Below, one piece after another: positions 34,759-37,952 of a DNA stretch of 41,521 nucleotides (positions within the stretch are counted from its first letter, which is position 1; every line of letters starts with the position of its first letter). The notes beneath the pieces are model-generated. The model had not been told where the DNA came from and did not search any database. It worked only from the letters and a program-made list of their open reading frames with translations. The position numbers were made by a program, and so were the translations under genes. This stretch comes from Thermomonas sp. (GTDB lineage: Bacteria > Pseudomonadota > Gammaproteobacteria > Xanthomonadales > Xanthomonadaceae), in assembly GCF_020850895.1 (NCBI RefSeq), contig NZ_JADZDS010000041.1:1-41521 (forward strand), given 5' to 3'.

Positions 34759-35940
34759 TCAGCGAACCGCATTGGCCTCCGTCAGCGCATCCAACACGCC
34801 ATCGATCTGTTCCGATGCATGCGCCGCCGACACGGTGATGCGCAACCGCGCGCTGTGTTCCGGCACCGTCGGCGGGCGGATCGCAGCCACCCAGTAACCG
34901 CGTTGCTCCAGCGCAGCGGACAGCGCGATGGCCTCGGCATCTGCGCCCACCAGAAGTGGCTGGATCGCGGTCTGCGATGACCGCAACGACAGGCCACGCG
35001 CCTCCGCGCCAACGCGGAAGCGGGTGATGTTGTCCCGCAAGCGGTGGCGCAATGCATCGCCTTCCTCGCTACGTACAATCATCAGTGCCGCCAGCGTCGC
35101 CGCCGCTTGCGCGGGTGGCAATGCGGTGGTGTAAATGCCGGGCCGCGCGGTTTGCAGCAGGTGTTCGATCAAGTCCGCATCGCCCACCAACGCGGCTCCC
35201 GCACCGCCCAGTGCCTTGCCGAAGGTCACCAAGCGCAGCGGCACGTCGTCCACGGTCAGTCCGGCGGCGTCAACGCTGCCACGCCCAAACGCGCCCATCA
35301 CACCGATGCCATGGGCATCGTCGACGTACAGCAACGCCTCGTGACGCTTCGCCTCCGCCGCCAATGCAGGCAGCGGCGCAACATCGCCATCCATCGAAAA
35401 CACGCCATCGCTGGCCAACACCGCCACACCTTCCGGATGCGCCACCAGCTGCCGGCCCGCCGCGGCTGCGTCGGCGTGTGGATAACGCTTGAAGGTGCAT
35501 CCCGCCAGCCGCGCGCCGTCGATCAGGCTGGCGTGGTTGAGTTTGTCCTGTACGCACAGATCGCCCGTGCCGAGCAGCGCCTGCAAGACCGCGAGGTTCG
35601 CCATGTAGCCGCTACCGAACAGCAGCGCGCGCGGCAGCTGCAGCCAATCGGCCAGCGCCTCTTCCAGCGCCGCATGCTGCGCGTCATGACCACAGACCAG
35701 ATGGGAGGCCGTGCTGCCCGCGCTGTCCGCCTTGCGCAGCGCGGCCAGCACCCGCGGATGCTGCGACAGGCCCAGATAATCGTTACTGCAGAAATTCAGC
35801 AGCCAGCGGGATTGGCTGCCATCGAGGACTTCGCAACGCACACCTTCGCGGCGCAGAACCGTGCGCCGGAATCGTTGTCGATGAGCCGATTCGCGCTGCG
35901 CATGCAGCGCGGCGATGCGCTCGCTCAGGCGGCTTCGCAT
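34759..35940 (-). CDS. bioF: 8-amino-7-oxononanoate synthase
   Basis: 393-residue PLP enzyme joining pimeloyl-ACP and alanine to form KAPA. Present: [14 protein letters not shown], the substrate-pocket [41 protein letters not shown], the PLP lysine in [15 protein letters not shown] and [13 protein letters not shown]. The start ATG at 35940 lies inside the 3' end of bioB (16-base overlap); the longer open frame to 36138 is only the bioB tail read in another frame and has no family likeness. It is co-transcribed and coupled with bioB, but separated from bioH and bioC by two other genes. Confidence 0.95.
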
Positions 35941-37178
35941 CCGCAGCCGCAGCCGCAGCCGTCCTCCGGCGCGCATGCAGCCGGGGCGGCCTCGAGCACC
36001 GGCATGGCAAGGCCCGCCGGTGCCGCCTCGGCCTTGCTGTCCTTGCAGCCGCACTTGCTGCCGCCGGTGCCGCAACCACCACCACCCGCACTGCACGAGC
36101 AGTTGTTGCCTTCGGTGCAGCAGCCGCCACCGCAGCACCCGCCACTGCTGCCGACGATGGTCAGGCCGGGAATGTCGCTGCTGCTGGATTTCACTTGATC
36201 GATGGCCATGGGACGCAAACCGAGACGCTGGAACAGGGCGTTATCGTACTCCGTATCCGGGTTACCGGTGGTTAACAGCTTGTCGCCGTGGAAAATCGAG
36301 TTGGCGCCAGCGGCAAAGCACAAGGCCTGCAGTTCGTCGCTCATCTCGGCGCGGCCGGCGGACAGCCGCACCATCGACGCCGGCATCACGATGCGCGCCA
36401 CCGCAATCGTGCGCACGAATTCGAACGGATCCAGCGGCTCAGCGTTGGCCAGCGGCGTCCCCGGCACCGGCACCAATTGGTTGATCGGCACCGAATCCGG
36501 GTGCGCCGGCAGGTTCGCCAGCGTCACCAGCAAGCCGGCACGCTGACGGCGGGTCTCACCCATGCCGACGATGCCGCCGCAGCAGGTTTTCATGCCGACA
36601 TCGCGGACGTGCCCAAGGGTGTCGAAGCGGTCCTGCACGGTGCGAGTGCCGATGATCTCGCCGTAAAACTCGGGATCGGTGTCGAGGTTGTGGTTGTAGT
36701 AATCCAGCCCGGCGTCCTTCAGCGCCCGCGCCTGCCCCGCGTCCAGCATGCCCAGCGTCGCGCAGGTTTCCAGCCCCAGCGCCTTCACCGCACGCACCAT
36801 GGCGGTCACCTTGGGCATGTCGCGCGGCTTCGGTGAGCGCCAGGCCGCGCCCATGCAGAAGCGCGAAGCGCCGGCGGCCTTGGCCTGCCGCGCCTGTTCG
36901 ACCACCGCATCGACGTCCATCAATTTGCTGGCCACAAGCCCGGTGCCGTGCGATGCCGACTGCGGGCAGTAGGCGCAATCCTCGGGGCAACCACCGGTCT
37001 TGACCGACAACAGGGTCGAGACCTGGACCTCGCAGGGATCGAACTGCTGACGATGCGCGCGGGCGGCCTGATAGAGCAATTCCGTGAACGGCAGATCGAA
37101 CAGGGCCTCGACCTCGGCGCGGGTCCAGTCATGGCGAATCGGGAAGTCGACAACGGGCAACGATCTGACGGCGGACAC
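35925..37178 (-). CDS. bioB: Biotin synthase with a 14-cysteine C-terminal tail
   Basis: Radical SAM enzyme inserting sulfur into dethiobiotin. From the GTG at 37178 it has 417 residues. The [4Fe-4S] motif is Cys64-Cys68-Cys71 ([10 protein letters not shown]); [2Fe-2S] ligands are Cys108, Cys139, Cys199 and Arg271. Each is offset by exactly 11 from the E. coli residue, which supports this start. An ATG at 37247 would overlap comF on the other strand. The core ends near 340. A tail follows, with Cys at 348, 349, 353, 354, 360, 362, 369, 376, 378, 402, 408, 410, 412 and 414, in Gly/Ser-rich sequence such as [11 protein letters not shown] and [13 protein letters not shown]. coli BioB (346 aa) lacks this. 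The tail looks like a metallothionein and may hold metal or Fe-S precursors (inference). Confidence 0.95.
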
Positions 37179-37226
37179 GGGGTTTTTCCGAAGACGCGGA
37201 ACGCGAATGCGCGCAGTCTGGGATGC

Positions 37227-37952
37227 ATGGACAGTCACGTCAACCAATCAACACCATCGGAAGTTGACGCAACGCTGCGCGCGCCCTTGCGCTGGTTGTT
37301 TGCGCCGCGCTGCGTGGCCTGCGGCGATCCCGGCCTGCCCGAGCGCGATCTTTGCTCCGCCTGCCGTGATGCGCTGCCCTGGCAAGGCTCCGCCTGCGCC
37401 CGCTGCGCACTGCCGCTGTCCAACGCCGGCACCTGCGGCCATTGCCATCAACATCCGCCGCCGCTGGATGGCGTCGTCGCTGCATTCGTCTACGCCTTCC
37501 CGGTCGATGGCCTGCTGCCGCGATTGAAATTCCACTCCGATTTCGCGGCTGGGCGGGTGATCAGCCAATGCTTGGTTCAGCGATTTTTCGACTGTCCGCG
37601 CCCTAGCGCGATCGTGCCCTTGCCATTGCATCCGGGCCGATTGCGACGCCGCGGCTACGATCAGGCGCTGGAACTGGCGAAACCACTCGCCCGTGCATTG
37701 CGGGTGCCATTGCGGGATGACCTGTTGTTGCGCACCCGCGCCACCGCGGCGCAATCGACACTCGATGCGGCGGCGCGAAAACGCAACCTGCGCGGTGCCT
37801 TTCGCGTGGCCGAAGGGGTGGCCCTGCCCGAACACGTCACCCTGTTCGACGACGTGATGACCACCGGCGCCACCCTGCACGCGGCGGCGGCGGCATTGCG
37901 CAAGGCCGGGGCACGACGGGTCGATGCGTGGGTCTGTGCGCGGGTGGCGTGA
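37227..37952 (+). CDS. comF: ComF family phosphoribosyltransferase-like protein
   Basis: 241 residues. The N-terminal zinc-ribbon-like part has paired cysteines (CVACG, LCSAC, CARC, CGHC, about residues 30-80). The phosphoribosyltransferase-type domain follows, with [28 protein letters not shown] and the PRPP loop [15 protein letters not shown] near the end. ComF (GntX) proteins aid DNA uptake or use of DNA as nutrient in naturally competent bacteria; the biochemical role is not settled. In many gammaproteobacteria it sits divergent from bioB, as here, 48 bases apart. The ATG at 37227 is preferred; in-frame sequence further upstream is antisense to bioB. Confidence 0.9.

What the first reader, a model, noticed from the sequence alone, without database searches (positions are those of the whole stretch)
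35925..36150. Biotin synthase fused to a metallothionein-like 14-Cys tail
BioB here is about 70 residues longer than E. coli BioB, and the extra C terminus carries 14 cysteines in Gly/Ser-rich sequence, ending DGCGCGCGC. BioB consumes its own [2Fe-2S] cluster as sulfur donor, so a Cys-rich tail could store iron or sulfur or help cluster rebuilding. The frame continues without break from the intact catalytic core, and bioF starts inside it.
Basis: partly seen in the sequence, partly recalled or inferred. Interest (0 to 1): 0.75.

Follow-up and report, generated by a model that had tools for sequence, protein, structure and literature searches.

The report
Biotin synthase with cysteine-rich tail
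In a small group of Thermomonas-like bacteria the vitamin-making enzyme biotin synthase carries a flexible tail packed with cysteines that evolution has kept intact, and several of these species have also lost a helper protein that handles iron-sulfur clusters, so the tail may help the enzyme reload the cluster that it uses up in each reaction.

Summary
The window's BioB (likely GTG start, 417 aa) has a canonical core with every iron-sulfur ligand, followed in frame by 96 residues with 14 Cys. It is not an assembly error: 9 of 23 BioB-bearing genomes of the genus, one the isolate Thermomonas beijingensis, have homologous tails (7-14 Cys); 13 end in a 28-residue one-Cys tail and one has 4 Cys. 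None of 163 distinct tails read outside the genus has more than 3. The central Cys block is kept as protein (dN/dS 0.015-0.07; core 0.10-0.14; linker 0.44-0.75), matches no known domain and is predicted disordered. bioF overlaps only the last 16 nt. Six tailed genomes, the window's included, lack the A-type carrier IscA that 19 of 25 genus genomes have beside asnS, and in the same six the end of ErpA is changed (usual in 18 of 18 others read). Best reading: a disordered thiol tail that helps BioB reload iron, sulfur or a cluster in cis, partly standing in for an A-type carrier. Nothing here shows metal binding; three tailed species keep IscA and four IscA-less genomes have ordinary tails, so the link may be coincidence.

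The parts
36216..37178 (-). BioB catalytic core (likely GTG start at 37178); radical SAM and BATS domains with all [4Fe-4S] and [2Fe-2S] ligands
   Evidence: start inferred by comparison with relatives
35928..36215 (-). C-terminal tail, 96 residues, 14 Cys, predicted disordered
   Evidence: pLDDT below 50 over residues 353-440
36150..36176 (-). DIPGLTIVG motif at the base of the tail, present with small changes in all 9 tailed species
   Evidence: alignment
36033..36143 (-). central Cys block [37 protein letters not shown] (9 Cys)
   Evidence: dN/dS 0.015-0.071 against core 0.105-0.138
35934..35972 (-). terminal [13 protein letters not shown] block; PEDGCGCGC is present in all 9 tailed species
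   Evidence: few synonymous changes too, as expected where the bioF start region overlaps
34759..35940 (-). bioF, whose ATG lies inside the GGATGC of the last Gly-Cys codons of bioB (16-nt overlap)

Best explanation
The tail is an intrinsically disordered, multi-thiol arm fused to an otherwise ordinary biotin synthase. The step thought most likely (inferred): its CGC and CxC thiols bind iron, persulfide or a labile cluster and pass it to the [2Fe-2S] site that BioB destroys at each turnover. It would thus work like a tethered A-type carrier, whose own functional end is a flexible C-terminal Cys-Gly-Cys. In the window's group this would have relieved BioB of its need for IscA, which was then lost while ErpA changed. 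Shown: the tail exists, is homologous across 9 species and is conserved as protein; IscA is absent and ErpA changed in six of the nine. Inferred: metal or cluster binding, transfer to BioB, and the causal link to the IscA loss.
For: Protein-level selection on the Cys block. Predicted disorder. CGC motifs: 4 CGC and 5 CxC, overlaps counted, in the window tail. An IscA gene lies beside asnS in 19 of 25 genus genomes (rpsF found on its other side in 17) and is absent in exactly six, G000, G006, G020, G017, G011 and G014, where asnS and rpsF are neighbours; IscA is present in 284 of 297 family genomes. ErpA ends CGCGSSFT(V/M) in 18 of 18 IscA-bearing genomes read and is altered in 6 of 6 without IscA. 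The genus has no match to IscU/NifU_N (0 of 25). [quoted passage not shown] LipA, which also consumes a cluster, has no Cys-rich end in the 24 of 25 loci read, so among these two the feature is specific to BioB.
Against: No binding data. Three tailed species (G005, G018, G021) keep IscA and the usual ErpA end, so the tail does not require IscA loss. Nine family genomes outside the group also give no IscA hit; the BioB tails of 4 of these 9 were read (G152, G217, G226, G258: 1, 0, 2 and 1 Cys) and none is Cys-rich, though G226 and G258 are 81-82% complete. Nine family species with a short CX3CXC end all keep IscA. The IscA loss is one or two events (two changes on the linked-gene tree; one clade not rejected with gyrB), so the association is hardly replicated. 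A review says that mitochondrial IscA homologues are needed for [4Fe-4S] but not for [2Fe-2S] assembly (PMC12683245, passage seen), whereas BioB's sacrificed cluster is [2Fe-2S]. LipA has the same reloading need and no tail.
Confidence: 0.4

Rival explanations
1. A soft-metal guard: the tail binds zinc or copper (or acts as a thiol buffer) and so protects BioB's cluster sites from wrong metals, like a built-in metallothionein, without delivering iron or sulfur.
For: CC and CxC thiol patterns with 14 Cys and no His. Zinc overload lowers the cluster content of BioB in E. coli and targets IscU, IscA and ferredoxin (PMC6495748, passages seen).
Against: Does not by itself explain the IscA loss and ErpA change; LipA carries no such tail. 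No Pfam or NCBIfam match for the tail.
Confidence: 0.25
2. The tail houses an additional defined Fe-S cluster, for example for electron transfer, as in radical SAM enzymes with auxiliary clusters in C-terminal extensions.
For: Auxiliary clusters do sit in C-terminal extensions of many radical SAM enzymes (PMC10470005, passages seen).
Against: Only Radical_SAM and BATS matched, no SPASM or Twitch family; disordered model; the number of Cys varies from 7 to 14 between species.
Confidence: 0.1
3. A regulatory tail: oxidation or metal loading of the thiols controls oligomerisation or proteolysis of BioB.
For: Disordered C-terminus; strong conservation of the Cys block.
Against: No direct evidence from any call.
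Confidence: 0.12
4. A by-product: GC-rich hexamer expansion (GGCTGC) and overlap with the bioF start, tolerated without function.
For: The terminal GCGCGC run lies over the bioF start region and shows few synonymous changes; tail length varies; another frame of the same DNA is Cys-rich too.
Against: The central block, outside the overlap, has high synonymous and almost no amino acid change (p 1e-8). Short CX3CXC ends also occur in L045 and L054, where the overlapping ATG seen in the tailed species is absent from the 36 bases printed before the stop.
Confidence: 0.08
5. Coincidence: IscA loss and ErpA change reflect another shift in iron-sulfur metabolism or niche of these six species, unrelated to the BioB tail, whatever the tail does. 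(This concerns the link alone, so it overlaps with the other readings.)
For: Three tailed species keep IscA; four other genomes without an IscA hit have ordinary BioB tails; one or two events only.
Against: Among good-quality family genomes only G152 and G217 outside the window's group give no IscA hit, and in the genus the loss falls wholly on tailed species.
Confidence: 0.45

Closest known systems
BsaP and the BioB-BsaP fusion of Pseudonocardia (PMC11099021)
   Same: A cysteine-bearing module at or beside biotin synthase, proposed to serve the sulfur-donating cluster; can be fused to BioB.
   Different: BsaP is predicted as a folded domain with three conserved Cys and serves BioBs in which Cys128 is Ala; here the core keeps that Cys (C162) and the Arg ligand (R294), and the tail is disordered, Gly/Cys-rich and gives no family match.
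A-type carriers IscA/SufA/ErpA
   Same: Flexible C-terminal Cys-Gly-Cys; reported cluster transfer from SufA to biotin synthase (PMC6006206, passages seen).
   Different: No A-type domain match in the tail; more CxC units.
SlyD-type metallochaperone tails (recalled; only paper listings seen)
   Same: C-terminal metal-binding tail rich in Gly and Cys (recalled).
   Different: SlyD tails are rich in His (recalled); the window tail has none and sits on an enzyme of another family.
Metallothioneins
   Same: High Cys content with CC and CxC patterns.
   Different: Not a separate small protein; no family match; metal binding not tested.
Short CX3CXC ends of other BioBs of the order
   Same: Cys cluster in the C-terminal tail of BioB.
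   Different: Only 3 Cys, tails of 33-40 residues, 11 of 12 with TVHAD; 12 of 163 distinct tails read, a sample enriched by my choice of genera.

Membership tests
Biotin synthase BioB (TIGR00433) | Match above the curated cut-off | tested here: met
   403.3 bits against 225
Biotin synthase BioB (TIGR00433) | CxxxCxxC, three [2Fe-2S] Cys and the Arg ligand | tested here: met
   C87, C91, C94, C131, C162, C222 and R294 invariant in 37 aligned BioBs, and aligned to 1r30
BsaP-dependent BioB | Cys128 replaced by Ala | tested here: not met
   Cys retained; feature from PMC11099021 section 11
BsaP-dependent BioB | BsaP domain, fused or adjacent | tested here: inconclusive
   The tail matches no NCBIfam or Pfam model at E up to 1; whether a BsaP model is in those libraries was not checked
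A-type carrier (PF01521) | Fe-S_biosyn domain | tested here: not met
   No match in BioB or its tail
A-type carrier (PF01521) | C-terminal Cys-Gly-Cys in a flexible segment | tested here: met
   4 CGC motifs, pLDDT below 50
Metallothionein | Family profile match | tested here: not met
   No Pfam or NCBIfam hit for the tail; low-complexity Cys-rich families may be missed
Metallothionein | Thiolate metal clusters | not testable with these tools
   Needs protein chemistry
SPASM/Twitch radical SAM auxiliary-cluster domain | Profile match in the C-terminal extension | tested here: not met
   Only Radical_SAM and BATS found

The most novel reading that the evidence does not exclude
BioB carries its own cluster-reloading arm, which makes it largely independent of A-type carriers and allowed six species to lose IscA and to reshape ErpA: a self-regenerating sacrificial-cluster enzyme that arose in steps, from a 4-Cys end as in G019 to 14 Cys in the window.
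Probability: 0.15. Interest if true: 0.85.

Novelty: new variant of a known kind. Interest (0 to 1): 0.6.

Why it matters
How biotin synthase regains its sacrificed cluster in the cell is an open question, and most BioBs turn over few times in vitro (both recalled). A natural BioB with a conserved thiol arm, beside close relatives without it and with or without IscA, is a ready comparative set for testing cluster reloading, and might suggest how to make better biotin-producing strains.

Tried and rejected
Frameshift or assembly error: rejected, as 9 genomes share homologous tails, one of them a named isolate. Pure repeat expansion or overlap by-product: rejected for the central block. A donor gene for the tail elsewhere: a tail search of 25 genomes gave hits at E 1e-6 or lower only in BioB; weaker hits (E 6.9e-5 to 1) are many, and the three inspected (L201, L202, L203) lie inside much longer ORFs in other frames, as chance matches would; the rest were not inspected. 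PDB search with the tail at E up to 10 gave 9 sequences, all antibody fragments, matched mainly at Gly-Ser-rich stretches (three alignments seen). LipA as a second tailed enzyme: no. IscU loss as the cause: the whole genus lacks a match. NfuA loss: no, 25 of 25 have it.

Trees: the BioB core splits the tailed rows 6+3 (one clade not rejected, p 0.274). Five linked genes reject one tailed clade (p 0.027; G018 and G021 fill only 36% of columns, and G023 is partial too) and put G014 with G021 (96/92), which would make IscA loss two changes. gyrB rejects one tailed clade strongly (p 4e-5, 23 rows, without G000 and G019) but not the five IscA-less rows present as one clade (p 0.415). bioF makes the 9 one clade (96/93, 23 rows, two of them with extra sequence that was trimmed by column; 100/99 with 15 rows). 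So the tail travels with bioF, and species history is mixed by transfer or loss. rpoB was tried and had no match in 6 of 25 genomes, so no tree was made. Structure-library searches were not run, because the tail has no confident structure.

Full report
What is there. The frame at 35925-37247(-) encodes biotin synthase. Relatives suggest a GTG start at 37178, giving 417 aa. The core is canonical: Radical_SAM and BATS domains, TIGR00433 at 403 bits, and the ligands of the E. coli enzyme (1r30) conserved (ligand numbering from PMC11099021). After RLGL follow 96 residues with 14 Cys and 21 Gly. AlphaFold with 37 sequences gives pLDDT below 50 for residues 353-440, so the tail is predicted to be flexible. 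Only one other row of that alignment (L031) has a long Cys-rich tail, so the alignment says little about the tail itself.

Distribution. Of 25 genomes of the genus (the window's own included), 23 have a BioB match; the two without are 80% and 86% complete. Nine have long Cys-rich tails (14, 14, 13, 7, 7, 10, 9, 9, 9 Cys), thirteen a 28-residue tail with one Cys ending in a TVHAGITEAA-like motif, and one (G019) a 26-residue tail with 4 Cys. One tailed genome, G021, is Thermomonas beijingensis (L031 and L009 encode the same frame on contigs of the same length). Outside the genus I read 166 loci, 163 of them distinct: 79 from public genome and metagenome-assembled records, 7 of the 11 order-level matches, and 80 chosen from the 286 family genomes with a match. 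L031 and two weak non-BioB hits were left out. The largest Cys count is 3 and the longest tail 61 residues. The motif TVHA is present in 100 of the 163, in 13 of the 14 genus members without a long tail (TAHA counted), and in none of the 9. Twelve of the 163 have CX3CXC; this share is inflated, because I fetched more members of two genera that showed it.

Selection. Among three closely related tails (L001, L002, L003) the Cys block has dN/dS 0.015, 0.071 and 0.039; the core 0.105, 0.134 and 0.138; the linker 0.44, 0.75 and 0.69; the proximal part 0.50-0.53. Between L001 and L002 the block has 12 synonymous and 1 nonsynonymous differences (p 1e-8 against equal rates; p 0.013 against the linker; not different from the core, p 0.18). 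The block is therefore kept as protein. The terminal PEDGCGCGC shows neither amino acid nor many silent changes, as expected where the bioF start lies in the same DNA. The high Cys count alone would not prove function, since one antisense frame of the same DNA also reads 15 Cys.

Junction with bioF. In all nine tailed species and in G019 an ATG inside bioB's last Cys codons (GGATGC, or GCATGC in G019) opens the bioF frame, 16 nt before the end of bioB. In short-tailed species such as G002 the likely bioF start (MARES...) follows the bioB stop, although an in-frame ATG also lies 26 nt before bioB's end. The bioF tree joins the nine tailed rows (96/93) with G019 as sister (100/99). This fits a stepwise origin: a short Cys end with overlapping bioF, then insertion of GGCGxGCGC modules, then enlargement in G000, G006 and G020 (inferred). 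BioB core, gyrB and linked-gene trees disagree with it, so transfer or loss within the genus is likely. G018 has 4% contamination by the listing, so its placement is uncertain.

Iron-sulfur context. No genome of the genus matches IscU/NifU_N (0 of 25); all have NfuA (25 of 25). An IscA-type carrier gene lies beside asnS in 19 of 25, with rpsF found on the other side in 17; in exactly six (G000, G006, G020, G017, G011, G014) asnS and rpsF are neighbours without it. All six have long BioB tails. In the family, 284 of 297 genomes have IscA at E up to 1e-20, and 263 of 269 good-quality ones; the six good-quality ones without a hit are four of the window's group (the other two were not in this sample) plus G152 and G217, whose BioB tails have 1 and 0 Cys. 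In the same six genus genomes ErpA has lost the SSFTV end after CGCG (now SIE, GAE, TIE, SIED, TIE, SSG), and in five of them GGGCSGF has become GGGC(T/A)GF; 18 of 18 IscA-bearing genomes read keep SSFT(V/M) (ErpA of G015 was not read). The A-type carriers were therefore remodelled in these six.

Mechanism. [quoted passage not shown] IscA is discussed as an iron chaperone for cluster assembly (PMC12683245, passages seen); the same review says that the mitochondrial homologues serve [4Fe-4S] and not [2Fe-2S] assembly, which speaks against my reading, as BioB sacrifices a [2Fe-2S] cluster. The tail multiplies Cys-Gly-Cys motifs and is tied to an enzyme that destroys its own cluster. I therefore favour iron, sulfur or cluster reloading in cis (0.4). 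Soft-metal protection (0.25) is the main rival, and coincidence of the tail with IscA loss (0.45, a statement about the link alone) cannot be excluded: three tailed species keep IscA, and the loss is one or two events.

Known relatives. BsaP of actinobacteria and its fusion to BioB in Pseudonocardia are the nearest precedent (PMC11099021: abstract, passages and section 11 seen), but there Cys128 of the BioB core is replaced by Ala, while it is present here. Literature searches for biotin synthase with cysteine-rich C-terminal, A-type carrier, Thermomonas, C-terminal extension, and IscA/SufA cluster transfer listed no paper whose title or shown start of abstract describes such a tail; searches did not list every hit, and most full texts were not opened, so absence from print is not shown.

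Noticed in passing
L205-L210 (asnS-rpsF locus of G000, G006, G020, G017, G011, G014): IscA-type A-type carrier gene missing in exactly six tailed genomes, the window's included, while 19 of 25 genus genomes have it beside asnS.
   Followed up: yes
L216, L217, L222, L219, L310, L311 (ErpA): The ErpA ending CGCGSSFT(V/M), seen in 18 of 18 others read, is changed in the same six genomes, and the first Cys motif in five of them.
   Followed up: partly
window 35925-35940: bioB and bioF overlap by 16 nt, with the bioF ATG formed inside the Gly-Cys codons; shared by all nine tailed species and G019.
   Followed up: yes
L116, L120, L134, L153, L155, L156, L158, L159, L165, L045, L052, L054: Short CX3CXC motifs in the BioB tails of several other genera; in L165 the motif sits internally, which suggests repeated origin.
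   Followed up: partly
BioB tails of the order, e.g. L032, L039, L116: A short conserved motif TVHA (often TVHADI) in 100 of 163 distinct BioB tails outside the genus, of unknown role, absent from the nine long-tailed species.
   Followed up: no
L237-L260 (LipA): Two clearly different LipA types in the genus, by score and by C-terminal sequence, with a distribution that does not follow the BioB tails.
   Followed up: no
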